NCBI RefSeq assembly: GCF_039532215.1
Contig: NZ_BAAARN010000005.1
Coordinates: 62,001 to 126,000 of the forward strand
Reading direction: 5' to 3'
DNA: 64,000 bases
DNA from: Pedococcus aerophilus
GTDB lineage: Bacteria; Actinomycetota; Actinomycetes; Actinomycetales; Dermatophilaceae
The notes under the pieces were generated by a model that was not told the DNA's origin, did no database searches, and worked only from the letters and a program-made list of their open reading frames with translations. Each line of letters begins with the position of its first letter. Within the stretch, counting starts at the first letter, position 1. The position numbers and the translations under genes are program-made. Positions 41,934 to 63,664 of the stretch are shown here, in pieces.

Positions 41934-43136
41934 TCAGGCGCTCTTGGGGACGCGGACGATGAGGGCGTCGCCCTGGCCGCCGCCACCGCACAGCGCGGCC
42001 GCACCGACACCGCCACCGCGGCGCTGGAGCTCCAGCGCGAGGTGCAGGGCGATGCGCGCACCGGACATGCCGATCGGGTGGCCGAGGGCGATGGCGCCAC
42101 CGTTGACGTTGACCTTGTCGACGTCGATGCCGAGCTCCTTGGCCGAGGCCAGGCCGACCGCGGCGAACGCCTCGTTGATCTCGACGAGGTCGAGGTCCGC
42201 GGGCGTGATGCCCTCGCGCTCGCAGGCCTTGGCGATGGCGCGAGCCGGCTGCTGCTGGAGCGTCGAGTCGGGGCCGGCGACCATGCCGTGCGCGCCGATC
42301 TCGGCGAGCCAGGTGAGCCCGAGCTCCTCCGCCCTGGCCTTGCTCATCACGACGACGGCAGCAGCGCCGTCGCTGATCTGACTGGCGGACCCGGCGGTGA
42401 TGGTGCCGTCCTTGGAGAACGCCGGGCGCAGCTTGCCGAGCGAGTCGGTCGTCGTGTCGGCACGGATGCCCTCGTCGGACTTGAACTCGATCGGGTCGCC
42501 CTTGCGCTGCGGGATCGACACCGGCACGACCTCGTCGTCGAACAGGCCGTCCTTCCAGGCGCGGGCGGCGAGCTGGTGGCTGCGCGCGGAGAACTCGTCC
42601 TGCTGCTCGCGGGTGAACTCCTGCGAGCCGGTGTTGGCCTGCTCGGTGAGCAGCCCCATCGCCTGGTCGGTGAACGCGTCCCACAGGCCGTCGAAGGCCA
42701 TGTGGTCGCGCATCGTCACGTCGCCGTACTTGTAGCCCTCGCGCGACTTCTCCAGCAGGTGCGGCGCGTTGGTCATCGACTCCTGGCCGCCCGCCACGAC
42801 GACGTCGACCTCGCCGGCGCGGATCATCTGGTCGGCCATGGCGATGGCGTTGATGCCCGACAGGCAGACCTTGTTGATCGTCAGGGCCGGGACGTTCATC
42901 GGGATGCCGGCCTTGGCCGCAGCCTGGCGTGCGGGGATCTGCCCGGCGCCGGCCTGGAGCACCTGGCCCATGATCACGTAGTCGACCTGGTCGGGAGCGA
43001 CGCCGGACTTGTCGAGCGCGCCCTTGATGGCGACGCCACCGAGGTCGGCCCCGCTGAAGCCCTTGAGCGAGCCGAGCAGGCGGCCCATGGGGGTGCGGGC
43101 CCCCGCGACGATGACGGAAACGGGACGGTCAGACAT
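41934..43136 (-). CDS. Acetyl-CoA C-acetyltransferase (thiolase)
   Basis: The 400-residue thiolase has the nucleophilic Cys in [13 protein letters not shown] (about residue 89), [19 protein letters not shown] (His) and [11 protein letters not shown] (second Cys), all intact. It condenses or cleaves acetoacetyl-CoA/3-ketoacyl-CoA. The ATG at 43136 has GGAGG eight bases upstream, and TAGAGT at 43181-43176 is a likely -10. It is followed by meaB as a two-gene unit, linking acetyl-CoA and propionyl/butyryl-CoA metabolism. Confidence 0.94.
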
Positions 43137-43175
43137 GGTTCAAGCCTCCAGCGCCATTGGTGTGGTTCACCGGGC

Positions 43176-43181
43176 ACTCTA
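43176..43181 (-). promoter_or_regulatory. -10-like TAGAGT of the thiolase-meaB unit
   Basis: TAGAGT on the minus strand, about 39 bases upstream of the thiolase ATG, leaves room for a leader with the GGAGG ribosome-binding site. No clear -35 is seen. Confidence 0.35.
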
Positions 43182-43225
43182 GTCGCGCGCCCGGGGCACG
43201 GGTCGGCCCGGGCGGGTGGCCCTGA

Positions 43226-43251
43226 CCACACGCGGGTATGCCGCGTGGTGG
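43226..43251 (-). terminator. Hairpin after the giant two-gene operon
   Basis: CACGCGG and CCGCGTG pair across the loop GTATG; the stem continues for three more pairs past a one-base bulge. It starts 24 bases beyond the stop of the 1256-residue gene and lies upstream of the thiolase promoter. The right half is the dispersed 13-mer. Confidence 0.5.
43236..43248 (+). repeat. Dispersed 13-mer GTATGCCGCGTGG (intergenic copy)
   Basis: Exact copy of the word at 24322 and 35124, here forming the loop and right arm of the hairpin between the giant operon and the thiolase gene. Confidence 0.55.
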
Positions 43252-43274
43252 GCTCTGCGCCCACCGCGCCGACC

Positions 43275-46200
43275 TCAGGTGGTGGCCGTCGCCGTGACCC
43301 GTTGTCCCTCGGGGCTGAGCACGCCCACCGAGATCCGCACCGCCCCCGTGAGCGGGATGAACGCCTCGTACGGAGCAGGGGCGCCGGGTCCCCGCCGGAG
43401 CCGGTTGCGCACCACGGCGATCTCACCGGTCCGGGGCAGTCCGTCGGAGGCCCACGGGATCTCGTCGAACGGGAACGTCCCCGTGAGCGTCCGGACGCGA
43501 GGCAGGAACGGCCCGACGGGTGGGAAGGGCAGTCCCCGTCGGAACCCTCCCCCGACGCCACCGGCACGCACGGGACCGCCGAGGCCACCGGGGAACCTCT
43601 CGCGGAACGGCGGTGGCCGGTCGGGCAGCACGACCGGTCCGAGGAGCTGGGAGGCGACCACCTCGAGCACGTAGGGCGGACGTCGTCTGGCGCTGGCGTT
43701 GGTCCGGATGCCGACGTGCACGCCGCGGCCGGCGATCGTGAAGACGTCGACGAGCTCGAGCGTCACGTCCGGGGGCGGCTCGACCCACCCCGGCACGGTG
43801 AGCTCTCGGGTCACCTCGCGGCCGAAGGGGTCGACCAGGCGCAGGAGCACGTCGACGGGGTCCGCGGCCACCGGGCGGGTGAACCACAGGGCGAGCGGCG
43901 ACCGCCCCGCCACCCTGTCCCCCTGCTCGATGATCGGTGTCGTCGAGGCCGCAGCCGGCGGAGCGGTCAGTGGGGCCCTGGGGACCTCGGGCAGCGCGAC
44001 GACCGCGACGCCCTCCGCCCCGGCCGTCCCGTCGAGGCGGTGGACGCCGGCGGGCAACCAGCGCGGCGGGGCGGTCGTCGCAGACCGGACGAGCACGCCC
44101 CGGTGGCCGCCGCCCCAGACCTCGGCGGTCAACGGCTCCAGCTCGGGCGCACCCGGCGGCACGACGAGCGGGACGACGTCGGACGCCACCGACGGGAGCC
44201 CCCGCTCCCCCTTCGCCGGCACGGTGTCCACCGGCACCGCCACGGCGCGCAGGAGCCAGGGGTCCCAGCGGCCGGGCAGCGTGCCGGTCCACGTGGCCGA
44301 CCAGATCGGCTGTCCCAGCACGCGGTCGACGTCCGCCGGCGTCGGCACGGCCGTCACCGCCACCTCGGCGAACGCCGGACCCATCGTGGACACGTCGCGA
44401 GCAGCCTCCTCCGAGGTGGTCCGGTGCAACCGGAACCGTTGCACCGCAATGTCGCTCGCGGCATACAGGGTGATCGTGACGGTGCCGTCCGCGGCGACGG
44501 ACGGACGTGCCAACGGTGGCGCGGGGCGGCGCAGCCGCGGCGCCATCACGGCCTGGAGGTGCTCGTGGGGGGTCCCGGAGTCGGGCCACGGGCTCTCCAC
44601 CCCGGACCTCGTCATGGTGGTGACGAGGAAGAGGTGGATGTCGGTGGATCCCTTGGGCAGGGTGGCGTCGTACGTCCGGTCGGCGCCGTCGACCTCCTGG
44701 AACCTGCGGAAGGCGGCCCGGCGCTGGGTCGGGGTCATGGCGTCGTACGCCGTCCTGAGGTCCACCAGGCGCTGACCGGGCACCGTGGAGTCGGGCGCCC
44801 TGGGGGTGAGGCCCGCCCGCTGGCGCAGCGACGTCTCGTTGACCTCCCAGATGATGCAGGTCCGCACGTCGGCGCCGCCCGGCAGCGACCAGGCCACCCG
44901 CACGTGGCTGCAGCCCTGGGCGTCGAGGGTGCTGCCGAGCGGGACCCCGGGCAGCGGCGGCGGCGGGAGGGGGACGACCGGCACCGGGCTCGCCGCGCTG
45001 GTGCGCGCCGGGTGCGGCTCCCCCGGGGACCACGGGGTGGGGCTCGCCCCGACGAGCAGGTGCCGACGCGCCCACACCTGGACGCCCCAGCGCCCGGTGC
45101 TCCCGAAGTCGAGGGTGGGGACGTCGGCGACCACGGCGTAGCGACGCCCACCGTCGCCCTGGGCCGGGCCGGGGACGACGGTCTCCGTGCCGTCGGCGGA
45201 CAGCGGTCGCACGGTGCAGCCGGACGGCACCGGGGTGTCGCCGACGAAGCCGAACCCGAGGTCGCGGCGGAAGCACCCGCCCGGGGTGACGGCGTCCGGC
45301 GACAGCCCTGCGGGCGGGGTCGCGGTGGGTGAGGACATCGGGAACCAGATGGCGACGAGGTCGACCTGGGTCGGGGTGCGCTCCTCCCACTCGACGGCGA
45401 CCTCGGCCTTGAGGGTCGCAGGGCAGGACGGGGAGCCGGCGTACCGGGTGTCCAGGGCCACCGAGATGAGGCGGGTGGGTTGCGGCGCGGGTTCGTCGCC
45501 GTTCCAGGCGACGTCCTGCCACGGTGACCAGATGCCGTGCAGGTCGCTCACCGCGACGGCGTAGCCGAGGTGGCGTCCACCGCTGCCGATCGGGATCTCC
45601 TGCCCACCGTCGACGAGGGCGATGCGGTTGTTGCCCGTCCTGCCCTCGGGACCGTCCGGGGTGACGAGCAGGGGACGGTCGCCGCCGGCGTCGCGCCGCG
45701 GCAGCAGTGAGACCGCCGGGCCCGTGGTCAGGAGGTCGAACCGCGCGAGGGCGGACTCGGTCACCGGCGAGGTCGCGGCAGCCTTCGGCACGCGGTCCCA
45801 GGCGAGGCGGACCGACTCCCTCCACGGTGCGTCCGGTACGACCGGGCCGACGAGCCCGGCGCGTTCGGAGGTGAGCCCGGTGGGCGCCGGTACGACCAGG
45901 TGCGGCTCGGGGGCGGGTGCGTAGGCGGCGAACTCCGCTCCCCCGCGGTCGGGCGGAGCGAGGCGCGAGTACTTCGCGGTGACGAGGAAGTCGCAGCGAC
46001 CGACCTGCACCTGGACGTCGTCCATCTGCTCCATCGTGTAGCTGGCCCCGAAACCGCAGGCGAGGTTGAGGAAGGGGTCGCTCAGCGCGGGGAGCATGAG
46101 CATCGGCCACGGCCCCGTGTCGGCGGTGGTGCCGAGCGAGGAGGTCCGGCCGTCCTGCTGCGGCGGGTCGACCGTGCGCGGACTCGTGACGGCGAACTGC

Positions 46201-47045
46201 TGGTACTCGCGGACGCTGGGGTCGTAGAGGGCGGGCAGCTCGGGGAACAGGTCGCGCCGGACCTCCTCGACGAGCAGCTTCGGGTCGGGGGCCTGCCACG
46301 GCGGCGCCGCCCGGCCCGCCTCGGTGACGGGTGCCCAGCCGATCGGCGGGCCGCCTCGCAGGAGGCGGTGGATCGCGGCGTCCACCGGCGGCATGAGCCG
46401 GTCCAGCGGCCCCTGGTCGGAGGTGTCGTACTCGAAGCCCGCGAGCGGCTGGTCCACCGGCAGCCCGACGAGCTCGAGCGGCACCCAGGCGTCGTCGTTG
46501 ACGATCCGGTCGAGTGGGTCGACGGCGACGCGGATGTCGGTGCCGTTGACCACCTTCGCGTAGGTCGCCCCGGATGTGCGGACCTCGAGCGTGACCGGAT
46601 CGGCATTGACCGGCCGCAGCGACGCCGCAGCGACCACGTGGTCGGGGTCGTCACCGGTGCGGAACAGCAGCACCGCGACCGGCTGGCCGGGGTCGAGGGG
46701 ACGGCAGGTGACGACCACGCAGCCCGCCTCGACCGCGCCCCAGGTCACCAGCGGCACGGGGTCGGAGAAGACGAACGCCTTGGTGCGCTTCGGCGCGTCC
46801 TTGGGGCTGCGGGTCCAGACCGTGAAGGCGCCACGGGGCACACCGAGCCCGGGACCGCAGGCCCAGCTCAGGTGGATGTCCATGGAGCGCAGCTGGAGGA
46901 GGCGCTCGTCGAACGCGGGGCCCGCGCGGTCGACGTCGATGTGGCCGAGCCGGCGCAGGAGCGCTCGCTGACGTGCTGCCAGGGTCGCCCACGGCAGCCG
47001 GACGGCCTTGGCGCGGAACAACGACGAGTCGGACCGGCGTGCCAT
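43275..47045 (-). CDS. Giant protein (1256 aa) of unknown function, partner of the 2260-aa protein
   Basis: The protein begins MARRSDSSLFRAKAVRLPWAT and has no signal peptide or membrane helix. It is Pro/Val-rich, with many beta-strand blocks that look like fibronectin/Ig-type repeats (for example LTSERAGLVGPVVPDAPWRESVRLAWD, then a VRVAWSLPGGADVRTCIIWEVN block). The C-terminal 150 residues are Gly/Pro/Arg-rich. ATG 47045 shares one base with the TGA of the upstream 2260-residue gene (TGATG), so it is translationally coupled to it. Codon use is as in neighbouring genes. No enzyme motif found. Confidence 0.8.
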   Translation of the reverse strand: MARRSDSSLFRAKAVRLPWATLAARQRALLRRLGHIDVDRAGPAFDERLLQLRSMDIHLSWACGPGLGVPRGAFTVWTRSPKDAPKRTKAFVFSDPVPLVTWGAVEAGCVVVTCRPLDPGQPVAVLLFRTGDDPDHVVAAASLRPVNADPVTLEVRTSGATYAKVVNGTDIRVAVDPLDRIVNDDAWVPLELVGLPVDQPLAGFEYDTSDQGPLDRLMPPVDAAIHRLLRGGPPIGWAPVTEAGRAAPPWQAPDPKLLVEEVRRDLFPELPALYDPSVREYQQFAVTSPRTVDPPQQDGRTSSLGTTADTGPWPMLMLPALSDPFLNLACGFGASYTMEQMDDVQVQVGRCDFLVTAKYSRLAPPDRGGAEFAAYAPAPEPHLVVPAPTGLTSERAGLVGPVVPDAPWRESVRLAWDRVPKAAATSPVTESALARFDLLTTGPAVSLLPRRDAGGDRPLLVTPDGPEGRTGNNRIALVDGGQEIPIGSGGRHLGYAVAVSDLHGIWSPWQDVAWNGDEPAPQPTRLISVALDTRYAGSPSCPATLKAEVAVEWEERTPTQVDLVAIWFPMSSPTATPPAGLSPDAVTPGGCFRRDLGFGFVGDTPVPSGCTVRPLSADGTETVVPGPAQGDGGRRYAVVADVPTLDFGSTGRWGVQVWARRHLLVGASPTPWSPGEPHPARTSAASPVPVVPLPPPPLPGVPLGSTLDAQGCSHVRVAWSLPGGADVRTCIIWEVNETSLRQRAGLTPRAPDSTVPGQRLVDLRTAYDAMTPTQRRAAFRRFQEVDGADRTYDATLPKGSTDIHLFLVTTMTRSGVESPWPDSGTPHEHLQAVMAPRLRRPAPPLARPSVAADGTVTITLYAASDIAVQRFRLHRTTSEEAARDVSTMGPAFAEVAVTAVPTPADVDRVLGQPIWSATWTGTLPGRWDPWLLRAVAVPVDTVPAKGERGLPSVASDVVPLVVPPGAPELEPLTAEVWGGGHRGVLVRSATTAPPRWLPAGVHRLDGTAGAEGVAVVALPEVPRAPLTAPPAAASTTPIIEQGDRVAGRSPLALWFTRPVAADPVDVLLRLVDPFGREVTRELTVPGWVEPPPDVTLELVDVFTIAGRGVHVGIRTNASARRRPPYVLEVVASQLLGPVVLPDRPPPFRERFPGGLGGPVRAGGVGGGFRRGLPFPPVGPFLPRVRTLTGTFPFDEIPWASDGLPRTGEIAVVRNRLRRGPGAPAPYEAFIPLTGAVRISVGVLSPEGQRVTATATT

Positions 47046-50000
47046 CAGAGCTCCTCCTCCCAGGGTGCGCGTTGCAGCGGGACGTCCACGGCCAGCGCCC
47101 GGCTCTCCGAGGCGTTCGCCAGGGCGTCGGCGGCGACGACGAGGTCGAGGGCGACCCGCTTGCCGCGCGCACCGGCGTCGAGCAGGACAACGGCTCGTCC
47201 GAGTCCGGGGCCGCGGATGATGCGGGTGATGCCGGCCGCGGGGAGCGAACCCGCCGGTGCCGCAGAGGTGCTCGCCCTGAGCGAGAGCCAGTCGGTCGGG
47301 CGTGCTGCCCACCAGTGGTGCGTGGGATCGACCGAGTCCACTGGTCCCTGGACCTTGGTCGGCATGAGCCTGTTCCGCCACAACGTCTCGCTGCACTCGA
47401 CGAGGACGGCCAGTGGTGTCGGCACCGCGTCGGTCGACCACAGCACCTGGACCACGGGAGCCCCCGGGGTCTGCGGGACGGTGAGCCCGGCCGCCTGGAA
47501 CGCCGTGTCGAGCTGGTCGCCGGTGGGGGCGTCCGGCAGGGCCGCCAGAGGGCCGATCGCAGGGACGACGGTATGGCGCCAACGCGCCTCCCGCAGCAAC
47601 CCGGCCAGCTGCGCGACGGTGCCGAAGGCGCTGGTGGTGAAGCCGATCCGGTGCACGAGGGCCCGGGCACCGGCAGGGGCGCCTTTGGGCACGGCGTGGA
47701 TGTCGATGAGGTAGTCGGTGAGCGGCTCGAGGTCGTAGGGCAGCTCCAGCACGTCGTGGTGGGTGCGTTCGCCGGAGAGGTCGATGCACTGCTGCCCCTG
47801 GCTCAGCACCTCGACGACAGCCTCCTCCCACGGGGTGGTCACGGCCAGCCCGCGTGCCTCCTTGAGGAACACCCCGTCGCGCTGGAGCGCCACGGCGAAG
47901 GCGCTCCCCGGCGCCCCTCCCCCGGGCGGCACCGGGTGCTTGCCGGAGGCGGCGAGGACGATGACGCGCAGCTCCTTGCCGTAGGCGTCGAACAGGGCGG
48001 TGACGTTCTGCGTCGCCAGGGCGATGCGGATCGGCTCGGCGCACAGGACGCCGACGTCGTCCATGCCCGGGGCCGTGGCGAGCAGCCACGGCGACAGGTC
48101 CTTGGGCGACTCGTCCTGGCCGTCGGCGGCGAACCGGTAGCTGTCGGTGTGGCCACCGTCCCACGTGGGCGCCACCGTCGGCTCGGCGTCCTGCTTGACC
48201 GAGGCAGCCTTCCAGTCGACGGTCACCGTGTAGGAGCGGCCGGGCACGAGCAGGGCGTGGTCGTCGGGGTCCTGGGCGAGCGCGGTGGAGATGGCCTCCT
48301 GCTCGCTGGTGACGACCGAGGTGTCCCACTCCCACCGTGTCGCCTCGCTCGTCACCACACCCGTCATGGCGACGAGGTGGAAGGCGGGCGGCTCCTGGTC
48401 CTTCGGGAACTGCGTTGCGTCCCAACCGATCTCGATCGTCGCGACGTCCCGCAGGTCGCGGGAGTGCACGAGGACTAGGGTCTGTCGCCACGTCGCCCGC
48501 GCGGCGGTGCGGGCCGCCACCTGCCCGGCCCGGCAGACCGGATCGGCCCACGGGCCGTCGCCGTCGACCCAGGTGGCGGGCAGCGGGTTGTCGGCGTCGA
48601 CCCGGTCGTCGGAGGACAGCCCGCGCTCGTCGAGCACCTGGCCCTTGGCGTCGAGCCAGCGCACGACAAGGCGTTCGACGAAGATCTCCTCGGGGACGAG
48701 CAGCAGCAGGGTCACGTCGCCCGCGCCCCCGCCGGGGGCGATCCGCAGGGTGTCGCGCAGGTCGCCCGGGGTGAACCTGAGCCGGTCCCACGCCCGCTTC
48801 ACGCGCTCCATGTCGGACTCCGTGCCGCGCGGGGCAGGCTGGTCCGAGTCGAGGACGGGCGAGCGGAGGATGCGCCCCTCGCAACCGAGCCCGGTCGACG
48901 CGGCCCGGCCGACCGCCATACCTGCTGCTCGTCCCCCGCCCACCCCGACGGCCAGCCCGAGCGCTGGGTCCCATCCCTGCATCAGCCGGGTGGCCTGCAC
49001 GTCGCCGAGACTCGCTCCGTCGGCCAGGGCCGTGGCGACCTCGGTCCAGGCGCGCTCGTCCGTGGCCAGGGCACGGTGGGAGAACGTCGAGCCCGCGGTG
49101 GCGACCCAGCCCTTGAGGGGGTCGGGCTGCGGGCGGCCGGGTGCCTTCTCGCAGCAGCGCACCGAGTCGCCGACGACGACGGCCGGGCTCGTGCCCTGGA
49201 GCAGGTCGATCGCCGCGTCACCGGTCCGCCAGGCCTCCGTGACGTCGCAGTCGGCGTGCACCGGGCGCGTGCGCAGTGTGTCGGGCGGGTCGGGCCACGG
49301 GATGCCGGTGAGGTTCCAGCCGACGGTGCTGGCGCCGGGAGGCTTACCGTCGAACGTCCACAGCACCGAGGCCGGCGGCGCGGCAGGGTTGCAGGCGGTC
49401 CCCCACCGGTCGGTCACGCTCGTGGTCAGGGCCTCGCCGTAGGGCAGGGCCCGGCTGAACGGTGTCGGCAGCCAGTTGAGCAGGGCGAGGGCCGGGCCGG
49501 AGGACGGGTCCGCCGGTGAGGTCTGCTTCCACCACGAGCTCGGGGTCTTGCCGGCGGGCGCCGCCGGCTGGAGGTCGCCGGTGAGCGTGACCGAGGTGAC
49601 CTGGTAGGTCCACCACCGGTCGCCCAGCCGCACCCACGGGCGGGCGCCGCTGTTGCCCAACGGCGTGCCGCCGAGGACGGGACCGGCGACGGAGGGGGCC
49701 GTGTTGAACAGCACCACCGGTATGGCGTCCAGCGGCACCGTGGGCGCGGCGCCGGCGACCCCGTCCCCCAGGGCGTCCGCCAGCTTGCCGTCGATCGAGC
49801 GTTGCCCGCCCGTCCCCTCGACGAGCGCAGGTGAGCGCGAGACGAGGCTGACACCCGCCACGAGCGGTGGCGGGGTGAGCGTCTCGCTCGGCTTGGAGCC
49901 GATGGTCAGCGACACGCAGCCCTTGACGCTGAAGAAGAAGAAGTCGACCTCGCCGCAGACCTCGCCGTGGACGTAGGTGATGTCGGGGCTGCTCGGGGTG

Positions 50001-53000
50001 GTGCGGCCGACGAGGACTTCGAGCTCGGCGCTGGCCCCGATGCTGATGATGAACAGGCGCAGCTCGCCCCTGACGTAGATCTTTCCGGCGAGGAAGAACG
50101 GGTCGAAGCCCAGGATCGCGTCGAAGCCGCCGGCGACCTCGAGGTAGAGCCCGATGCTCTTGCTGCCCATGAGGACGCAGCTGATGTGGAAACCCGTGGC
50201 GATGGCCATCCCGCCGGTGACCGGCGGCAGCACGGGGATGCTCGTGATGCCGTTGCCGTGGACCATGAGGTAGCCGCTGCCGGTGATGACGTCGAGCACC
50301 TGGACCGTCACGCGGTCCTCGTAGGACCCGAGGTCGACCAGCCAGTCCTGCGGGTTGCCGGTGTCGAAGAACGCCGTGACCGGCACCCGGATCTTCAGCA
50401 GGCTCTGGATCTCGTAGGCCGCGACGATGCCGAGGGTGATCGTCCCGCGTCCGAAGTCGATGTCCAGCACGGCGAGGAAGGTCGCGCTCTGGTTGGCGTC
50501 CTTGAGGACCGGAGGCATCTTGAGGACGTCGGCCTTCATCACGAGCAGCAGCCTCGGCCCCGGCACCTCGATGAGGACGATGCCCTTGAGGTTGACCACG
50601 AACCCGCCGTCCACGGTGCCGAGCAGCATGCCGGCGGCGAACGCGTAGGAGCCCGCGGTGTGGGTCCATCCGTCCGGGTGCATGACGTGGCCGCGCTGGA
50701 GCTGCGCCTGGAGCCAGTCGAGCGCTGGGACCGGCCGCGCTGCATACGGGGCCTCGTTGCGGGCGTAGTTGATGCCCACGCCGCCGAGGAAGCCGTAGAT
50801 GCCCAGCCCCGAGTTCCCGAGCAGCAGCGGCACCGGCAGCTCGACCTCTGCACCGATGAGCACTCCGGTGACGCCGTCCCGGGTCTCGACGGCGAGGACG
50901 GCGCTGGCCCGCAGGTTGATCGGGGTGACGGTGAGGTCGAAGTAGCCCTTGAAGCCGAGCGGGGTGAACTCCAGGGATCCCCTGCCGTGCAACGTCCCCG
51001 GCACCTCGATGGAGGCCGCGAGCTTGGTGAGCGTCAGCTCGAACGGGCCGTCGATCCGTGCCCTGATCCGCACGGTCTCGACGGTGACGATGCCGAGGTC
51101 GAGCCCGAGGCCGACCTCCACCTCCATGTACGTGGGGTTGTCTCGGCTGACACGGAAGCCCAGGACGCGCAGCAGCTCGTCGAGCGGGGGGCTGGCGGTG
51201 AGGGCGCCGGCGGGGATGTCGAGGCTGTAGCCCCTGCTCGGGTCGAAGACGGGGACGGGCAGGTAGTCGACGTGGCTGGGGTTCGCAGGGTTGGGGGCGG
51301 TGTCCCACGAGGAGCGCACGCCGATCGCCTTGTACCGCGTGGTGACCGGGTGCTCGGGGTTGACCTTGACGATCGTCAGGTCGAACGTGAAGGTCACCTC
51401 GATGTCGAGCAGGATGCTCACGCTCGTGCCGCGCGGGTCGACCGTGGCAGACCCGTCCGGCGCGATGACCCCCTGGCTGACGACGAGCTCGCCGCCGCGC
51501 AGGATGAGCTTCTGGGTGTTGATGAGGCTGCTGGCGCCCAGGGCGATGCTGCCGAGGGAGACCAGCGCACCGGCGGCCGGGCTGAGCTCGGCGGCGGCCG
51601 AGCTCAGCGGAGCGAGGATGCTCAGTGCGCCGAGGACGTTGAGGGCGTTGGGGTTCGAGTGCGCGAAGTCCATCTGCGCGAGCCCGTCGAGGTCGGCCTC
51701 GGCAGCGCGGAACTCGGCGCTGACGAGCCACGAGTCGCGGTCCTCGGCGATCCGCAGCCGCACGAGGAACGTGCAGATCCCGTCGTTGGGGTTGCGGGTG
51801 CCCTGTCGGAGCGCGGGCTGGGAGTGCTGGCGCAGGGCCGTCTCTGCGGCGGTCTCGATGTCGAACTCGCCGTACACCTCCGCCCGGATGAAGGTGCTGC
51901 GCAACAGCTCGACGCGCACCCCGATCTTGCGGAAGCAGTCCGGGCGACCGCCGGTGGGTGGTGTCCGGTCGACCTCCCGGGCGGGTGGCCGCACGACGCG
52001 TTCGACCCTCGCGGTGATGGTCTCCTCGCCGTTGCCCGCGGTGGTGGCCCTCGCCCGCCACCAGACGCCACTGCCTGCCGCGGGTGGCGGTGTGGTCCCC
52101 TCGACCGAGGCCGTCTGGGCCTTGGCCTGGGTGAACCCCTCGGCGCTTCCCGCGGTGACGTTGGTGAATCCCTTGCTGCGCAACAGGTCCACCATCACGT
52201 CGCGGCGCCGCTCGCTGAGCTTGCGGTTGTACTCCGCGTCCGCGGGGGTGTCGTGCAGCGGACCCTCCCACGACGCATACCCCTTGACTGTCAGGGCCGT
52301 TCCCGCACCGATCTGGGCGATGACCGCCGGGGTGAGCGCCTGGGTCAGTGGCGTCGAGCTGCCGGCGTCGTCGCGGCTCGATGCCTGACCTGTGCGGACG
52401 TTGTCGGGGTTGGTCGCCCACGTGTGCAGCGCCCCGGTGATGGTCGGGTTGAACGGCTCCGGCTTGGCGAACCGGTAGTACGCGTCGATCACCTGTGGCT
52501 GCGTCGCGGGCAACGTGGCCGTGACGTCGACCCGCGCCCCGGCCGCGACCGGGACGTCGGCGGTCGTCGAGGGACCTGCCGAGCCGCCGGCCCACGACCA
52601 GTTCGCAGCGACGGGCGGGTCCGTGGTCAGGCGCACCATCGTCGCCGTGGAGGCTCCCAGCACCTCGCGTATGGCGTGCGGCCGGGTGTTCGTCGGCGTC
52701 ACCTTGACCGTCGAGCTGCCGCCCGTGTCACTGGGATCGGTGCGCCGCATCGCACTCAGGCTGCGGGTGGTCGTGTTGCCCGCGCCGTCGGTCGCCGTGA
52801 CGGTGATGGACAGGCTGCCTGCGGCGGGGACGGTGAGCTCGACGCGGTCGTCGGTGGTGACGGTGCCGTCGACGGTGATGCTGACGCTGATCGGCGCGAG
52901 GCCGCCGGCGGTGTCGACGAAGAGGGTCGCGTGCTCGGGCACCTGGGCCGCCCCGGTGCCGGGGTCGCCGATCCACTCCCCCGACGCAGTGCGGAAGCTC

Positions 53001-53827
53001 ACCGTCATCGTCGGCGTCCCACCGCGGTTGACCACCTCGGCCTCGAAGACGCCGGTGACCCCGGCGTGGACCCCGAGGCCGATCCAGAGGTCGCGGACTC
53101 CTGCGCTGACGGCGACGCCCTGGAGACCGGTCGGGGCGACGAACAGCCGCGCCTCGGGCAGCCAGAAGCCCTGCCAGTCGGCAGGCATCGCCCGGGCCTG
53201 CGCCGGGACGCCGGGTCCGGCCGTCCCCGACAGGTCGAGCACCGCGGTCCGGAAGGCGAAGCCGACGACGTCCGAGGGGCCGACGAGGGCGTGCGGCGGG
53301 TTCATCGAGACGAACTCGTAGATGTGGTCGACGGGGGTGCCGCCCGTCTCTGCCGACAGTAGCTCGACGCCGACCGACTGGCCGGTGAGCTGCTTGGCGC
53401 GGATCCGCAGGGCGGGCAGGGTGAAGGTGACCGGCATGCCGTTGGCCCGCAGCTGGCCCTGGCCGTCGAGCTCGGCTCCGCGCAGGAACGGCAGTCGTAC
53501 CAGCACGATCGGCACGCTCAGGGTGACTCGCCAGCCCCCGTCGCCGACCCCGCCGCTCTGGTGCAGCGCGAGCTGGACGCCGACGGTCGGGTCGGGGAAC
53601 TCGATGGGTGTGGTGCTGGTCGTCCCGCCGTTGCCGAAGCCTCCCGACCCGGGGTCGAGCGTGATCGGTGTCGGCCAGGTCCCCGTGGCGGAGTAGGCGT
53701 GCCAGGTGCCGTCGTCGTCGGTCTGCAGCCCCTCGTCGGTGGCCGTCAGTCCCTGGAGCAGCGGGCGGACCTGGTCGAGGGCGCCGGAGCTCTGCGCTCC
53801 CGCGGGGAGCTCGTCCCAGAGCGACAC
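47045..53827 (-). CDS. Giant protein (2260 aa) with an OmpA-like segment and a DUF6603-like beta core
   Basis: GTG 53827 has GGAGG seven bases upstream. No signal peptide is present. Residues about 1-400 are beta-rich with an Ig-like block (SITVTATDGAGNTTTRS). About 505-575 resemble an OmpA-type peptidoglycan-binding fold (VKGYASWEGP, then YNRKLSERRRDVMVDLLRS). About 730-762 form a hydrophobic helical stretch. About 880-1310 are regular hydrophobic beta strands (LEFTPLGFKGYFDLTV, GLGIYGFLGGVGINYARN, GEVCGEVDFFFFSVKGCVSL) reminiscent of the DUF6603 proteins I remember. The last 950 residues are beta-rich with scattered Cys. Function unknown; an envelope, particle or tail-like structural role is a guess. 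Confidence 0.8.
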   Translation of the reverse strand: MSLWDELPAGAQSSGALDQVRPLLQGLTATDEGLQTDDDGTWHAYSATGTWPTPITLDPGSGGFGNGGTTSTTPIEFPDPTVGVQLALHQSGGVGDGGWRVTLSVPIVLVRLPFLRGAELDGQGQLRANGMPVTFTLPALRIRAKQLTGQSVGVELLSAETGGTPVDHIYEFVSMNPPHALVGPSDVVGFAFRTAVLDLSGTAGPGVPAQARAMPADWQGFWLPEARLFVAPTGLQGVAVSAGVRDLWIGLGVHAGVTGVFEAEVVNRGGTPTMTVSFRTASGEWIGDPGTGAAQVPEHATLFVDTAGGLAPISVSITVDGTVTTDDRVELTVPAAGSLSITVTATDGAGNTTTRSLSAMRRTDPSDTGGSSTVKVTPTNTRPHAIREVLGASTATMVRLTTDPPVAANWSWAGGSAGPSTTADVPVAAGARVDVTATLPATQPQVIDAYYRFAKPEPFNPTITGALHTWATNPDNVRTGQASSRDDAGSSTPLTQALTPAVIAQIGAGTALTVKGYASWEGPLHDTPADAEYNRKLSERRRDVMVDLLRSKGFTNVTAGSAEGFTQAKAQTASVEGTTPPPAAGSGVWWRARATTAGNGEETITARVERVVRPPAREVDRTPPTGGRPDCFRKIGVRVELLRSTFIRAEVYGEFDIETAAETALRQHSQPALRQGTRNPNDGICTFLVRLRIAEDRDSWLVSAEFRAAEADLDGLAQMDFAHSNPNALNVLGALSILAPLSSAAAELSPAAGALVSLGSIALGASSLINTQKLILRGGELVVSQGVIAPDGSATVDPRGTSVSILLDIEVTFTFDLTIVKVNPEHPVTTRYKAIGVRSSWDTAPNPANPSHVDYLPVPVFDPSRGYSLDIPAGALTASPPLDELLRVLGFRVSRDNPTYMEVEVGLGLDLGIVTVETVRIRARIDGPFELTLTKLAASIEVPGTLHGRGSLEFTPLGFKGYFDLTVTPINLRASAVLAVETRDGVTGVLIGAEVELPVPLLLGNSGLGIYGFLGGVGINYARNEAPYAARPVPALDWLQAQLQRGHVMHPDGWTHTAGSYAFAAGMLLGTVDGGFVVNLKGIVLIEVPGPRLLLVMKADVLKMPPVLKDANQSATFLAVLDIDFGRGTITLGIVAAYEIQSLLKIRVPVTAFFDTGNPQDWLVDLGSYEDRVTVQVLDVITGSGYLMVHGNGITSIPVLPPVTGGMAIATGFHISCVLMGSKSIGLYLEVAGGFDAILGFDPFFLAGKIYVRGELRLFIISIGASAELEVLVGRTTPSSPDITYVHGEVCGEVDFFFFSVKGCVSLTIGSKPSETLTPPPLVAGVSLVSRSPALVEGTGGQRSIDGKLADALGDGVAGAAPTVPLDAIPVVLFNTAPSVAGPVLGGTPLGNSGARPWVRLGDRWWTYQVTSVTLTGDLQPAAPAGKTPSSWWKQTSPADPSSGPALALLNWLPTPFSRALPYGEALTTSVTDRWGTACNPAAPPASVLWTFDGKPPGASTVGWNLTGIPWPDPPDTLRTRPVHADCDVTEAWRTGDAAIDLLQGTSPAVVVGDSVRCCEKAPGRPQPDPLKGWVATAGSTFSHRALATDERAWTEVATALADGASLGDVQATRLMQGWDPALGLAVGVGGGRAAGMAVGRAASTGLGCEGRILRSPVLDSDQPAPRGTESDMERVKRAWDRLRFTPGDLRDTLRIAPGGGAGDVTLLLLVPEEIFVERLVVRWLDAKGQVLDERGLSSDDRVDADNPLPATWVDGDGPWADPVCRAGQVAARTAARATWRQTLVLVHSRDLRDVATIEIGWDATQFPKDQEPPAFHLVAMTGVVTSEATRWEWDTSVVTSEQEAISTALAQDPDDHALLVPGRSYTVTVDWKAASVKQDAEPTVAPTWDGGHTDSYRFAADGQDESPKDLSPWLLATAPGMDDVGVLCAEPIRIALATQNVTALFDAYGKELRVIVLAASGKHPVPPGGGAPGSAFAVALQRDGVFLKEARGLAVTTPWEEAVVEVLSQGQQCIDLSGERTHHDVLELPYDLEPLTDYLIDIHAVPKGAPAGARALVHRIGFTTSAFGTVAQLAGLLREARWRHTVVPAIGPLAALPDAPTGDQLDTAFQAAGLTVPQTPGAPVVQVLWSTDAVPTPLAVLVECSETLWRNRLMPTKVQGPVDSVDPTHHWWAARPTDWLSLRASTSAAPAGSLPAAGITRIIRGPGLGRAVVLLDAGARGKRVALDLVVAADALANASESRALAVDVPLQRAPWEEEL

Positions 53828-54147
53828 GACACACCTCCCGGAGCGGGTGCGGGCACGACGGAGGACAGCCGGTCAGGGCGTCCGAGAAGAGGTCGGCCGC
53901 AGGTACCCCCTCGCAGCCAATCCCCAGCGAATGCAAGCCAATGGTGCTCTCTGCAGGTAACCAGCGGGCAGCGCTCCGGGTCAACGACCTGTCACAGAGC
54001 CGACACCCGTGCCATCCCATACGCCGACAATCCGGACGCCGGCCGACGCGCCGCGCTCGTGCTCGTGTCGCAGATCGTCACCGGCGCGCCCGACGGCCAC
54101 GGGCGCGAGGTGCGGACGCTCCACCTCTCCCACCGTGCACTGTCGGG

Positions 54148-54186
54148 GCTACGTCATTGAACGCGCTGTGCGTTCAATGACGTAGC
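54148..54186. terminator. Perfect 17-bp stem hairpin between the Tad and giant operons
   Basis: GCTACGTCATTGAACGC (54148-54164) pairs fully with 54170-54186 around a GCTGT loop. It is 111 bases past the end of the Tad operon and 320 bases before the giant gene start. There is no T-tract on either side. Less G+C-rich than its surroundings. It may end the Tad transcript, or be a DNA-level palindrome. Confidence 0.6.
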
Positions 54187-54205
54187 GTCCACACTCGCTC
54201 CCGCT

Positions 54206-54273
54206 GCCCTGCTCAGGTGCCGTGCCCCAGTGTCCTGCTCAGGTGCCCTGCCCCAGTGCCCTGCTCAGGCGCC
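54206..54273. repeat. 26-bp tandem repeat, 2.6 copies
   Basis: The unit, containing CCTGCTCAGGTGCC then TGCCCCAGT, starts at 54206 and 54232, with a partial copy at 54258-54273. Copies differ at two or three bases. It lies directly downstream of the Tad operon stop. Confidence 0.75.
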
Positions 54274-54296
54274 GGCCACCCGCCTCGTGGTTGCTC

Positions 54297-54806
54297 TCAC
54301 TGTCGGAGCTCGGCCCTGGCCCGCGACTCCACCGAGATGGTCACCGATCCACCCAGGGCATCGAGCAGTTCCCCGACGAGGGGCAGGTCGGCCTCGCCGG
54401 TCAACCGCACCACCGCGGTCCGGCCGTCGGGACTACCTGTGCCGTCGCTGACGGTCCAGGCGTTCATGCCCACGGGCAGCGGGCGTTCGGCGAGGTAGCG
54501 CTGGGCCGTGAGCGCGACGGTGGCGTCGTTCACGGGCACCGACTGCTCGATGCCTTCTTGGTACGCACCGAGGTCAAGGGAGTCGGCAGCATCGAGGGCA
54601 GCACCATCGGCGGCGTCGAGCAGGCGCATCCGTGACAGCTGGGCGGAGGTCACGGCGATGGTCCCGACGATCAGCAGGATGGCCACGACCGTGTAGCCGA
54701 GGACGAGGATGCCGACCTGACCGCCCTCGCCTCGTCGCAGCAGCGATCGCCGCGCTCGGGAGGCCGCTCGTGGGATCTCGCCCACCCACGGAGATCGTGG
54801 TGTCAC
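54297..54806 (-). CDS. TadG-like pilus-associated membrane protein
   Basis: The 169-residue protein has a basic N-terminus, then GEGGQVGILVLGYTVVAILL with a prepilin-like Gly before the single membrane helix (about 32-53), and an extracytoplasmic domain rich in Ala/Asp (LLDAADGAALDAADSL). This matches the short TadE/TadG-like protein ending actinobacterial tad loci (Rv3654c position). The GTG start 54806 overlaps the upstream gene stop. Probably a minor pilin-like or assembly component. Confidence 0.78.
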   Translation of the reverse strand: MTPRSPWVGEIPRAASRARRSLLRRGEGGQVGILVLGYTVVAILLIVGTIAVTSAQLSRMRLLDAADGAALDAADSLDLGAYQEGIEQSVPVNDATVALTAQRYLAERPLPVGMNAWTVSDGTGSPDGRTAVVRLTGEADLPLVGELLDALGGSVTISVESRARAELRQ

Positions 54807-59218: not shown

Positions 59219-62200
59219 ATGCGACTGCAACTGACCGTCACGCACCGCGCGTCCTCACCCGGAGCCCCACCCGGTCCGACGACCACCGAGGTGGAGGTGG
59301 ATGCTCCCGAGGGCACCACAGCCGCTGAGCTGAGCAACGCCCTGGTGGCCCACCTCGGGGGCGAGAGCCGTTCCGCCACGGGCCCCGTCGACAGCTCCGC
59401 CCCCGTGCTCCACGTCTCCGGCGAGGCCATCGACCCGGCGGCCCGCCTGGGAGCTCCCCCGCTGCTCACGGGCGCGTCCTTGACACTGCTCCCACGAAAC
59501 CTGTTGCACGACAGCACCTCTCGCACCGAAGGGGCTCGACGCAGCACCATGCTGCTCGCGGTGACGCACGGCCCGGACTGCGGGCGTTCGGTGGACCTGC
59601 GGTCAGGGTCGCTGACGGTCGGGCGTTCCGAGGAAGCCGACCTGTGCCTCGACGACCCCGGGCTGTCCCGCCTGCACGCCAAGCTCCGGGTGGAGGCGGA
59701 CGGGGTGACGCTCCAGGACCTCGGTTCCACGAACGGCACCACCGTGGACGGCCTCACCGTGGGCCACGACCCCGTACCGGTCACCACCACGAGCCGCATC
59801 CAGGTGGGAGCGACCACACTGGCCCTGCGTCCCGCCGGTGCCGTCCCCGCCGCCACGTCGGCCACCTGGCTCGGAACGCTCGCCGTGAACCGTCGGCCAC
59901 GGATCCTCGAGCCGCACCGTCCAACCACGGTCACCCTCCCCACGCCCCCGACCCCACCGCGCCGCACCCGGGTGCCCTGGCTGGCGGTGCTGCTCCCGCT
60001 GCCGGTCGCAGCGGCTCTCGCACTGTTCCTGGGACCGACGATGCTCGCCTTCGCCCTCATGGGCCCGGTGCTCATGGTCGGCTCCGTCCTGAGCGACCGG
60101 TGGGGAGCGCGTCGGACGTATGCGGCCGAGCTGGTCTCGCACGAGGCCGCTGTCCTCGTGGCGCGCGAGCGCGTCGCGGCGGCCTGCCGCGAGGAGCACC
60201 AGTTCCGGGTGCGCGCCGCGCCCGACCCTGCCACGGTCCTGGCGGTGGCCGGTGGCCCCACCGATCGGCTGTGGGAACGGCGGCACGACGACCCCGACGC
60301 TTTCTCCGTCTCGATCGGGCGGTGCCGTCGGGACGCCTCGGTCCGACTCGTGCACCCAGCGGCCTCGGGCCTCGAGGACCGGCCGCAGCTGTCCGATGCC
60401 CCATGCACCCTCGCCCTTCCCGAGGTCGGCGTGCTCGGCGTGTGCGGAGACCCCGTGGCGGTCACCCGCTCGGTGCGGTCGTTGCTCGGTCAGCTCGTCA
60501 CCACGCACTCCCCCGCGGACCTGCGGGTCGTCGCACTGGCCGACACCACGGACCACCTTGATCGTTGGCGGTGGCTGGATCGGGTCCCGCACTGCCACAA
60601 CGGGTTCCACGACCGGGGTGACTCGTCCCGGGCATCGTCCATCCACCCGGGACGCCTCGCGCTCGACCGCGACGACGCCGCCGTCCTCTCGACCGCGGGC
60701 GGCCTGGCTGCCCTGGTTCGCGACCGCCTCGACGACCGTCCCGGCAGCCGATGGGACGGTCCGGTCACCGCGGTGCTGCTCGACGGCGCCGCCGCCTTCC
60801 GCGCCGTCCCGGACCTGGCGGTGGTCCTCGCCGACGGCGCCAGGGCGGGCGTCGTGTGCCTCGCCCTCGGTGCAGACCGGTCCGAGCTCCCCCACGAGGC
60901 GGGCGCGGTGCTGGACCTGGCGCGGCCCGGTACCCCGTCGCTCTCGGCGCCGGGGCACCAGCACGAGGACCTGGTCGTGGACGGTGTGGGCGCTGCGTGG
61001 ACCGAGCGGCTGGGACGGGCCCTCGCGCCGCTCCGGGACGCAACCCCCTCCCAAGGTGCCGCAGCACTCCCCGGTCGCGCCGGCCTGCTGGGTCTCCCGG
61101 GCTGTCCGTCGGAGCACGTCGACCGCCCCGGCGGGTCGCCGAGCAGCGAGAGCGCCGGGTCCGACGTCGCCGCAGCCTGGACCCGGACGCCGCACTCCAC
61201 CCTTGTGCCGCTCGGGGTGTGCAGCACCGGCACCTTCTGGGTCGACCTGGCGCAGGACGGCCCCCACCTGCTCGTGGGTGGGACCACGGGAGCAGGCAAG
61301 TCCGAGCTCCTGCGGACGCTGGTCGCGGCCCTCGCCCTGCACAACAGCCCGGAGCACCTGTCGTTCGTGCTCGTGGACTACAAGGGTGGAGCCGCCTTCC
61401 GCGACTGCTCGGACCTGCCCCACGTGACCGGGGTCGTCACCGACCTCGACGACCAGCTGGCCTCGCGGGCACTCACCTCGCTGATGGCGGAGGTGACGCG
61501 GCGCGAGCGTCTACTGCGCGACGCCGGTGTCACGGAATTCGTTGCCTACCAATGCAGTTCGGCTGGAACGGGCTCACCGCTGGCGCGCCTCGTCGTCGTG
61601 GTCGACGAGTTCCGCGCCCTCGCCGAGGAGCTTCCCAGGTTCGTCGACGGCCTGGTCCACCTCGCCGCCGTGGGTCGGTCGCTCGGGATCCACCTGGTCC
61701 TGGCGACCCAGCGCCCAGCAGGGGTGGTGACTGCCGACATCAAGGCCAACGTCAACCTGCGCATCGCCTTGCGCATGCGAGACCGGATCGACTCGGAGGA
61801 CGTCATCGACAGTCCCGTGGCCGCGTCGATCTCGCCCTCGACCCCCGGTCGCGCCCACGCCCGCGTCGGAGGCTCGCCCCTGCTGGAGTTCCAGGCCGCC
61901 CACGTCGGATCCTTGCTCCGCGGAGGACCCCGAGACGGGGTCCGCATCACGACGATCGACGACGGGTCGGAGATCGTGGAGAGAAAGCGGTCGGACTTCC
62001 GCACACCCGATGGTTTCGAGCCCACCGAGCCGACCGAGCTGCGCGCCATCGTCGAGGCGACCGCCGGGGCAGCAGCACTCCTGGGCATCGAGCCCGCACC
62101 CAAGGCCTGGCTGCCTCCCCTTCCCGATGTCGTGGACCACGCGTCCCTGGCCGTTCCCCCGGACGACCTGACCGCCCACCTCGGGATCGTGGACGTCCCG

Positions 62201-63664
62201 GAGGAGCAGCGCCAGCACCCCCTCGTCCTCGACCTGCGGGCCAGGGGCCACTGGGCGGTCGTGGGCGCCCCGGGCACTGGCCGGTCGAGTGCGTTGACGA
62301 CCGTGGCCCGATCGCTGTGCGCCCGTCGCGCCAGCGACGCCCTGCACGTGTACGCCGTCAGTGGGGGTGGACTCGAGACCCTCGCCTCGCTGCCCCACGT
62401 GGGGGCCAGCACGAGCTGGTCCGACCCGCAGCGGGTGGAACGACTGGTCCGACGACTGGCCTCGGAGGTCTCCGACCGGCGCAGCGCCCTGGCCCGCCGC
62501 GGCCTCACGACGATGACCCAGTGGTGGGAGTCGGCAGACTCGGTCACCGCCCCGCCGCCCATCCTGCTGCTCGTCGACGACTGGGACCTGGCCGCCGGCC
62601 GACACGACGACCTGGCCCTGGCCTCCCTCGTCGACCAGATCCTGACCCTGCTGCGCGAGGGTGAGCCGGTCGGCCTGACCGGGGTGCTGGCCGGGGACCG
62701 GTCGCTGCTGCTCGGTCGGGCCGGGGCGGCGGTCAGCCGCCGGGTGGTCCTCCGGCTGGCAGACCCTTCCGACGCGGTGCTGCTCGGACTGACTCCCCGT
62801 GCCGTCGGGGTGCTCCAGCACAGTGGACGTGGGCTGACGTCGGACGGCCGGTACGTCCAGCTGGCCCTGCCTCCGGAGCCTGACCTGACGCACCACGCTC
62901 CACCTGCCGACGACCGCCAGGGGCCACTGCGGATCGAGCCCCTTCCGGTGTTGGTGCGGTCCGACGACCTGGCGCAGGACCTCGGCGACCGTACCGGGGT
63001 GGCCCTGGGTGTCGGTGGCGACGAAGCCATGACCCTGACACTCGACCCGGGACGGGACGGGCGACGTTGGCTGGTCGTGGGAGGGGCCTCCTCCGGCGTG
63101 TCGACCACCGTGCTGCTCATCGCCGGCCACCTGCTCGCAGTCGGGCGACCGGTCGCCGTCGTCGCTCCGCGCGGAGGCCCGCTCGAGGAGCTCCGCGGCC
63201 ACCCGGGGATCGCCTGTTGGCACGACGGGTCGTCGTCAGCCGGCCTGGTCCGGGCTCGGCAGGAGCACCCCGAGCTCGCCGTCGTGGTCGACGACGCCGA
63301 GCAGCTCCTCGACGACCCCGTGGAGCCCGTCGTCAAGGAGATCTCGCACCTCGTCGACCGTGACGACGGCCTCCTCGTGGTGGGCGCGAACGCCACCGCG
63401 CTGTCGTCCCAGTACCGCGGCGTCGCCGTCGAGATCGCCCGCCACCGAACCGGGGTCCTGCTGGGACCTCGCTCGGGCGTCGAGCGAGACCTGTTCGCGC
63501 TCAAGATCCCGCTCGAGCGCGACGCGCTGGCAGGCCGTGGCCAGCTGGTTCGCCGCGGGCTCGGGACACCGATCCAGGTCGCCCTGCCCACCGCCACCAA
63601 TGGCGTGGCCGCCGCTACCAGCGGCGTGGTCGCAGCGGTCGCTGCCCCTCCACCCGCGGGGTAG
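59219..63664 (+). CDS. EssC-like FHA / FtsK-SpoIIIE secretion ATPase
   Basis: The 1481-residue protein matches EssC of type VII secretion in length and layout. It has an N-terminal beta domain (1-100), an FHA domain (about 108-200; LTVGRSEEADLCLDDPGLSRLHAKL, LQDLGSTNGT), two membrane helices (about 251-292) and three FtsK-like ATPase modules. Module 1 has full Walker A VGGTTGAGKSELL (about 688) and Walker B LVVVVDEF. Module 2 has GAPGTGRSSA (Lys replaced by Arg). Module 3 has GGASSGVSTT (Lys lost). The ATG start has a TAGCGT box seven bases upstream. No WXG100 substrate gene is visible. Confidence 0.85.
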   Translation: MRLQLTVTHRASSPGAPPGPTTTEVEVDAPEGTTAAELSNALVAHLGGESRSATGPVDSSAPVLHVSGEAIDPAARLGAPPLLTGASLTLLPRNLLHDSTSRTEGARRSTMLLAVTHGPDCGRSVDLRSGSLTVGRSEEADLCLDDPGLSRLHAKLRVEADGVTLQDLGSTNGTTVDGLTVGHDPVPVTTTSRIQVGATTLALRPAGAVPAATSATWLGTLAVNRRPRILEPHRPTTVTLPTPPTPPRRTRVPWLAVLLPLPVAAALALFLGPTMLAFALMGPVLMVGSVLSDRWGARRTYAAELVSHEAAVLVARERVAAACREEHQFRVRAAPDPATVLAVAGGPTDRLWERRHDDPDAFSVSIGRCRRDASVRLVHPAASGLEDRPQLSDAPCTLALPEVGVLGVCGDPVAVTRSVRSLLGQLVTTHSPADLRVVALADTTDHLDRWRWLDRVPHCHNGFHDRGDSSRASSIHPGRLALDRDDAAVLSTAGGLAALVRDRLDDRPGSRWDGPVTAVLLDGAAAFRAVPDLAVVLADGARAGVVCLALGADRSELPHEAGAVLDLARPGTPSLSAPGHQHEDLVVDGVGAAWTERLGRALAPLRDATPSQGAAALPGRAGLLGLPGCPSEHVDRPGGSPSSESAGSDVAAAWTRTPHSTLVPLGVCSTGTFWVDLAQDGPHLLVGGTTGAGKSELLRTLVAALALHNSPEHLSFVLVDYKGGAAFRDCSDLPHVTGVVTDLDDQLASRALTSLMAEVTRRERLLRDAGVTEFVAYQCSSAGTGSPLARLVVVVDEFRALAEELPRFVDGLVHLAAVGRSLGIHLVLATQRPAGVVTADIKANVNLRIALRMRDRIDSEDVIDSPVAASISPSTPGRAHARVGGSPLLEFQAAHVGSLLRGGPRDGVRITTIDDGSEIVERKRSDFRTPDGFEPTEPTELRAIVEATAGAAALLGIEPAPKAWLPPLPDVVDHASLAVPPDDLTAHLGIVDVPEEQRQHPLVLDLRARGHWAVVGAPGTGRSSALTTVARSLCARRASDALHVYAVSGGGLETLASLPHVGASTSWSDPQRVERLVRRLASEVSDRRSALARRGLTTMTQWWESADSVTAPPPILLLVDDWDLAAGRHDDLALASLVDQILTLLREGEPVGLTGVLAGDRSLLLGRAGAAVSRRVVLRLADPSDAVLLGLTPRAVGVLQHSGRGLTSDGRYVQLALPPEPDLTHHAPPADDRQGPLRIEPLPVLVRSDDLAQDLGDRTGVALGVGGDEAMTLTLDPGRDGRRWLVVGGASSGVSTTVLLIAGHLLAVGRPVAVVAPRGGPLEELRGHPGIACWHDGSSSAGLVRARQEHPELAVVVDDAEQLLDDPVEPVVKEISHLVDRDDGLLVVGANATALSSQYRGVAVEIARHRTGVLLGPRSGVERDLFALKIPLERDALAGRGQLVRRGLGTPIQVALPTATNGVAAATSGVVAAVAAPPPAG

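What the first reader, a model, noticed from the sequence alone, without database searches (positions are those of the whole stretch)
47045..53827. 2260-residue protein of unknown function with OmpA-like segment and long hydrophobic beta core
The gene starts GTG with a good ribosome-binding site, keeps normal codon use for 6.8 kb, and yet has no signal peptide and no enzyme motif. It combines an Ig-like region, an OmpA-like peptidoglycan-binding segment (about 505-575), a hydrophobic helix (about 730-762) and some 430 residues of regular hydrophobic strands recalling DUF6603. Such a protein could be a structural spike, envelope scaffold or part of an extracellular particle. It is the best candidate in the window for an undescribed system.
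Basis: partly seen in the sequence, partly recalled or inferred. Interest (0 to 1): 0.72.

Follow-up and report, generated by a model that had tools for sequence, protein, structure and literature searches.

The report
Mobile giant-protein pair with DUF6603 core
This soil actinobacterium carries a two-gene cassette for two very large proteins of unstudied function, one with about twenty long half-oily, half-watery protein strands, and related bacteria swap the cassette in and out of the same chromosomal spot, which suggests an undescribed exchangeable machine, possibly lipid- or membrane-binding.

Summary
The gene is real: 2260 aa, minus strand, GTG start at 53827, strong codon bias and purifying selection. 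The stop codon overlaps the start of a second large gene (43275-47045, 1256 aa, FN3-like by eye). Among 395 actinomycete genomes, the full-length second protein occurs only in the four that carry the first. The OmpA-like segment is weaker: no profile hit here, sub-threshold hits in relatives. Residues 886-1310 are predicted as 21 antiparallel strands averaging 12 residues, 18 with one hydrophobic and one polar face; the nearest solved structures are ApoB-100 and outer-membrane barrels, none significant. No signal peptide, enzyme motif, phage relative or tail sheath was found. In 11 Phycicoccus genomes the pair occupies a variable slot between Tad-pilus genes and a thiolase; the slot is empty in three and holds a different DUF6603 operon in one. 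Remote relatives lie on Rhizobium and Paracoccus plasmids. Best reading: an exchangeable, leaderless two-subunit assembly whose core binds lipid or membrane. That role is inferred; the cassette is well supported.

The parts
47045..53827 (-). Gene 1 (P0001), 2260 aa, leaderless, divergent DUF6603 protein
53834..53839 (-). Ribosome-binding site GGGAGG of gene 1
   Evidence: sequence
52988..53827 (-). N-terminal region, residues 1-280, beta-amphipathic, no family match
52757..52915 (-). Ig-like stretch, residues 305-357, sub-threshold only
52103..52315 (-). OmpA-like segment, residues 505-575; no profile hit here, sub-threshold in relatives
51521..51646 (-). Hydrophobic stretch, residues 728-769, marginal as a membrane helix
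49898..51172 (-). Core of 21 long amphipathic antiparallel strands, residues 886-1310
   Evidence: AlphaFold model (local pLDDT 75-89 at residues 929-1089), face analysis
50453..51160 (-). Match to DUF6603 (PF20248), profile 14-253 of 502, 27.9 bits against cut-off 27
47063..48052 (-). C-terminal region, residues 1926-2255, weak FN3/Ig-like arrangement, with motif FTTSxF/Y at 2063
43275..47045 (-). Gene 2 (P0002), 1256 aa, start overlaps stop of gene 1 (TGATG); FN3-like repeats judged by eye
43247..43265 (-). Hairpin after gene 2, stem also changed in register in L002; likely terminator
   Evidence: sequence
54297..54785 (-). Left border of the cargo slot: last gene of the Tad/Flp pilus cluster
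41934..43136 (-). Right border of the cargo slot: thiolase

Best explanation
The two genes form one horizontally exchanged cassette for a two-subunit giant assembly. Shown by computation: gene 1 is a divergent DUF6603 protein; gene 2 is its constant partner; both are under purifying selection; the cassette occupies a slot that congeners leave empty or fill with other cargo, once with a different DUF6603 operon. Supported by a moderate-confidence model: the core of gene 1 is a meander of about 21 long antiparallel strands, oily on one face and polar on the other. Inferred: the two proteins bind each other; the Ig/FN3-like parts of both are arms for contact; the oily face of the sheet shields or binds lipid (as in lipid-transfer grooves or the ApoB belt) or inserts into a membrane; the complex is built in the cytosol because neither protein has a signal peptide, and reaches its site by lysis or an unknown route. 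A phospholipase-D-like third gene in two proteobacterial versions of the operon fits a lipid theme.
For: DUF6603 identity (hhalign against a clear DUF6603 class, probability 97.9%, E 5e-13). Pairing: P0002 full length only in the four of 395 genomes with P0001, plus one genome with decayed pieces of both; same order in Phycicoccus, G113, G096, G076, Rhizobium tropici and probably Paracoccus. Slot. Selection. Amphipathic strands. Nearest folds: ApoB-100 first in Foldseek (E 2.4e-3), then usher, porins, LptD; barrels by VIA with large rmsd. PLD-like neighbour.
Against: Model confidence is only moderate (mean pLDDT 57), no Foldseek match reaches E 1e-3 in the PDB, and VIA rmsd values are large. 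An amphipathic sheet could equally pack against a second sheet in a soluble protein with no lipid at all. No PLD-like gene lies with the pair in the actinobacterial loci seen, and the catalytic motif looks degenerate in Rhizobium; PLD-like proteins can also be nucleases. No experiment or paper on DUF6603 was found.
Confidence: 0.35

Rival explanations
1. Leaderless subunits of a lysis-released toxin or antagonistic particle that inserts its barrel-like core into target membranes, analogous in logic to Tc-type complexes or tail-like particles.
For: Leaderless, multi-gene, giant beta-rich proteins; patchy in soil, plant- and fungus-associated bacteria; cargo exchange; barrel-like nearest folds.
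Against: No tail sheath in the genome, no phage relatives, no recognisable toxin domain, no immunity gene next to the pair; related DUF6603 operons also in haloarchaea.
Confidence: 0.2
2. A structural scaffold of the cell surface or cell interior: large Ig/FN3-like arms on a stable soluble beta sheet, with no lipid role.
For: Ig/FN3-like arrangement of the C-terminal region; no enzyme motif; the haloarchaeal DUF6603 operon is followed by genes annotated as BGTF surface-domain and lamin-tail proteins.
Against: No signal peptide in the members examined; strand faces are strongly unequal; frequent gain and loss is unusual for a structural protein.
Confidence: 0.25
3. An anti-phage or other conflict system kept in a variable slot next to pilus genes.
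For: Variable slot, patchy distribution, decayed copy in G118.
Against: No match to PADLOC models for P0001 or P0002; no nuclease, sensor or effector domain in the pair; slot also holds unrelated cargo.
Confidence: 0.08
4. Gene 1 is an outer-membrane beta-barrel protein, as annotated in Paracoccus.
For: Annotation in pAMI4; barrels among nearest folds.
Against: No signal peptide in the members examined, including those from Gram-negative hosts; found in Gram-positive bacteria that have no outer membrane; the strands are internal, not C-terminal.
Confidence: 0.04

Closest known systems
DUF6603 proteins (Pfam PF20248, function unknown)
   Same: Core profile match just above cut-off, same conserved motifs in alignment A3, same habit of sitting in operons of giant leaderless proteins
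   Different: Only half the profile matches and identity to typical members is 15-21%; carries an OmpA-like segment and a different partner; partners of other DUF6603 classes are not detectably related to P0002
ApoB-100 / large lipid transfer proteins (beta belt)
   Same: Long antiparallel amphipathic strands; best Foldseek hit
   Different: Match not significant (E 2.4e-3, TM 0.15); no sequence relation; no lipid shown
Outer-membrane beta-barrels (porins, ushers, TonB receptors)
   Same: Up-and-down meander of long amphipathic strands
   Different: No signal peptide, present in monoderms, internal position in a 2260-aa protein, large rmsd
OmpA-family domain (PF00691)
   Same: Segment YNxxLSERRxD; sub-threshold hits in relatives
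   Different: No profile hit in this protein; the Asp of the canonical motif is Ser here

Membership tests
DUF6603 (PF20248) | Curated profile reached | tested here: met
   27.9 bits against 27 in the genome search, profile 14-253 of 502; hmmscan of the whole protein did not list it
DUF6603 (PF20248) | Relation confirmed by an independent profile comparison | tested here: met
   hhalign of the gene-1 family against class IV DUF6603 proteins: probability 97.9%, E 5e-13; class II 64.6%, class III 34.5%
DUF6603 (PF20248) | Known biochemical function | not testable with these tools
   Function unknown; no paper in the library holds DUF6603, PF20248 or IPR046538
OmpA family (PF00691) | Profile reached | tested here: not met
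   No hit for P0001; relatives 13.4-24.3 bits against 27.2
OmpA family (PF00691) | Peptidoglycan-contacting Asp and Arg | tested here: not met
   By eye: motif reads GYASWEG, Ser in place of Asp; Arg kept in SERRRD; the Paracoccus relative has both
Outer-membrane beta-barrel protein | Signal peptide for export | tested here: not met
   No N-terminal hydrophobic stretch in gene 1 or its DUF6603 relatives
Outer-membrane beta-barrel protein | Closed barrel of amphipathic strands | tested here: inconclusive
   Meander with barrel-like matches but moderate pLDDT and large rmsd
Lipid-transfer groove / large lipid transfer proteins | Long amphipathic antiparallel sheet with one oily face | tested here: met
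   18 of 21 core strands in a moderate-confidence model
Lipid-transfer groove / large lipid transfer proteins | Bound lipid | not testable with these tools
   Needs purified protein
Lipid-transfer groove / large lipid transfer proteins | Sequence or significant fold match to a known member | tested here: inconclusive
   No Pfam match; best Foldseek ApoB-100 E 2.4e-3
Contractile injection system / tail-like particle | Sheath gene in the genome | tested here: not met
   PF04984 search of own genome: none, with 3 positive controls
FN3 repeat protein (gene 2) | Profile reached | tested here: not met
   No Pfam hit for whole or pieces; FN3-likeness rests on reading the sequence

The most novel reading that the evidence does not exclude
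DUF6603 operons, of which this pair is a divergent class, are an undescribed kind of horizontally exchanged system found in actinobacteria, bacilli, proteobacteria and haloarchaea: leaderless giant-protein complexes built around an open or closed amphipathic beta sheet that carries lipid or enters membranes.
Probability: 0.25. Interest if true: 0.85.

Novelty: new variant of a known kind. Interest (0 to 1): 0.56.

Why it matters
DUF6603 is a named protein family without a function, and the paper library holds nothing on it. The data here turn one odd gene into a defined, testable unit: two genes, always together, moving in and out of a fixed slot where a congener carries another DUF6603 operon. 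Empty, occupied and decayed sites in relatives give ready genetic comparisons. If the core binds lipid, it would be a large lipid-handling protein in bacteria outside the known transfer-protein families.

Tried and rejected
Phage or viral origin: no relatives in viral contigs or phage records. Viral structure library: one hit under 1e-3, a tail fibre with TM 0.10, not meaningful. Tail sheath in genome: none. Known enzyme or adhesin: no family. Solved relatives by sequence: none. Structure of the C-terminal 916 residues: poor model (pLDDT 44), only weak FN3/Ig arrangement. Relation of gene 2 to partner genes of other DUF6603 classes: none detected. Two early genome searches with the full protein failed on the server. 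A functional link to the Tad pilus was considered: most DUF6603 loci examined have no Tad genes beside them, so the neighbourhood is read as a slot, not a partnership.

Full report
What is there. The window lies in a Phycicoccus-like actinobacterium (closest relatives Phycicoccus sp. Root101 and Soil802, 92% and 84% identity for this protein). The ORF at 47045-53827 is on the minus strand, starts GTG at 53827 after GGGAGG, and has third-position GC of 0.94. The start is kept in relatives (GTG in Root101, ATG in G113 and G096). dN/dS is 0.09 against Root101 and 0.21 against Soil802, and all segments are constrained in the Root101 comparison. The gene is real and used.

The unit is two genes. 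The stop of gene 1 overlaps the start of gene 2 (TGATG at 47043-47047). Gene 2, 43275-47045, codes for 1256 aa with no Pfam match. Reading the sequence, it resembles repeated FN3 domains, but no profile confirms this. A hairpin follows gene 2 and another precedes gene 1; both are kept in Root101 with paired changes in the stems. In a sample of 395 actinomycete genomes, full-length gene 2 occurs in exactly the four genomes with gene 1 (G000, G076, G096, G113), and a fifth genome, G118, holds decayed pieces of both side by side. Rhizobium tropici plasmid pRtrCIAT899c has the same order, gene 1 (77% covered, 30% identity) then gene 2; Paracoccus pAMI4 has a gene 1 relative followed by a 1114-aa protein with a marginal match to gene 2. 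Mycetohabitans plasmids have a DUF6603 protein after a phospholipase-D-like gene and a protein related to part of gene 2.

Identity of gene 1. hmmscan of the whole protein found nothing over cut-off. The genome search with PF20248 (DUF6603), which scores candidate stretches, gave 27.9 bits against a cut-off of 27 at window 50453-51160. Profile-profile comparison with a clear DUF6603 class gave probability 97.9%, E 5e-13. A joint alignment shows shared motifs over the whole core. The OmpA-like segment has no hit in this protein; the same segment of three relatives gives 24.3, 17.8 and 13.4 bits against 27.2, and the Asp typical of peptidoglycan contact is Ser here. It is probably an OmpA-like fold with unproven binding.

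Structure. AlphaFold of residues 690-1345 with 28 sequences gave mean pLDDT 57, with 75-89 for residues about 929-1089. It shows a meander of long antiparallel strands. In the core (886-1310) there are 21 strands averaging 12.3 residues, mostly joined by turns of 2-8 residues; 18 have one hydrophobic and one polar face. The face contrast over all 26 strands tested exceeds all 2000 shuffles (z 6.9), and the beta hydrophobic moment of 890-1330 has z 5.8. The strand limits come from the model, so the face test is not independent of it; the moment test is. Foldseek against the PDB put ApoB-100 first (E 2.4e-3), then ushers, porins and LptD, none under 1e-3. VIA-align gave barrels at Z 9-14 with rmsd 6-17. 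I read this as an amphipathic sheet whose closure is undecided. The C-terminal 916 residues gave a poor model with weak FN3/Ig-like arrangement.

The slot. The thiolase downstream (41934-43136) exists once in each of 11 Phycicoccus genomes. Between it and the last Tad/Flp gene (54297-54785) lie: the pair in G000, G007, G008 and G003 (in G003 gene 2 is interrupted by a frameshift); a different DUF6603 operon (about 200, 3320, 329, 1290 and 1250 aa among its genes) in G004; unrelated genes in G001, G009 and G005; and nothing but about 165-270 bases in G010, G006 and G002. So the pair is cargo of a variable site, and once another DUF6603 operon took the same site. DUF6603 is found in 36 of 395 actinomycete genomes, and in Paenibacillus, Paraburkholderia and haloarchaea, in multi-gene operons whose partner proteins have essentially no Pfam match.

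How it most likely works. The constant pairing and overlap suggest that the two proteins act together. Neither has a signal peptide, nor do the DUF6603 relatives from Gram-negative hosts, so an outer-membrane role is unlikely. The oily face of the core needs a partner: lipid, membrane, a second sheet, or the other protein. I favour lipid or membrane because strands are long and one-sided and a phospholipase-D-like gene joins two proteobacterial versions; this is inference, and a soluble scaffold or a lysis-released antagonistic particle are serious rivals. No tail sheath, phage relative, PADLOC match or toxin domain was found for the pair.

Novelty. As a protein, gene 1 is a divergent member of a family without a function. 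As a unit, the pair and the wider set of DUF6603 operons appear undescribed in the papers held, which exclude most subscription journals. I therefore rate it as a new variant of a known kind, with a real chance that the kind itself is new.

Noticed in passing
window 41934-54785 and L079, L080, L084, L085: Variable cargo slot between the last Tad/Flp gene and a thiolase in Phycicoccus: empty, DUF6603 pair, another DUF6603 operon, or unrelated genes.
   Followed up: yes
window 54150-54184; L002 1-33 and 9629-9663: Intergenic palindrome CTACGTCAYTGAWCG with paired changes between strains and more than one copy in Root101; may be a REP-like element or terminator.
   Followed up: partly
L065 1303-11233 and 13311-14818: In another genus of the family, a different DUF6603 operon also lies beside Tad/Flp pilin genes, in another arrangement.
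   Followed up: no
window 59297-63664: FHA plus FtsK/SpoIIIE ATPase protein resembling EccC of type VII secretion, beside the Tad cluster; no other ESX gene was looked for.
   Followed up: no
L104 10055-11223: Decayed pieces of both genes side by side in G118, a relic of a lost cassette.
   Followed up: yes
L050 2300-6183: Gene 2 is frameshifted in G003 while gene 1 is intact; real decay or assembly error not decided.
   Followed up: partly
L003 20770-22608 and L050 544-2346: A further gene of about 600 aa, opposite strand, lies between gene 2 and the thiolase in two congeners.
   Followed up: no
L067 4033-7788, L068 4027-7548, L069 14557-18231: The last gene of the class II DUF6603 operon (about 1200 aa) shows DGGxxW-type motifs suggestive of a beta-propeller, by eye only.
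   Followed up: no
L095 6335-30642: Streptomyces europaeiscabiei plasmid DUF6603 operon lies between sets of tyrosine recombinases, suggesting a mobile element.
   Followed up: no
L092 1-15672: Paenibacillus plasmid p-YT9A: DUF6603 operon about 9-12 kb from baseplate-V and GH-E nuclease genes, with unrelated genes between.
   Followed up: no
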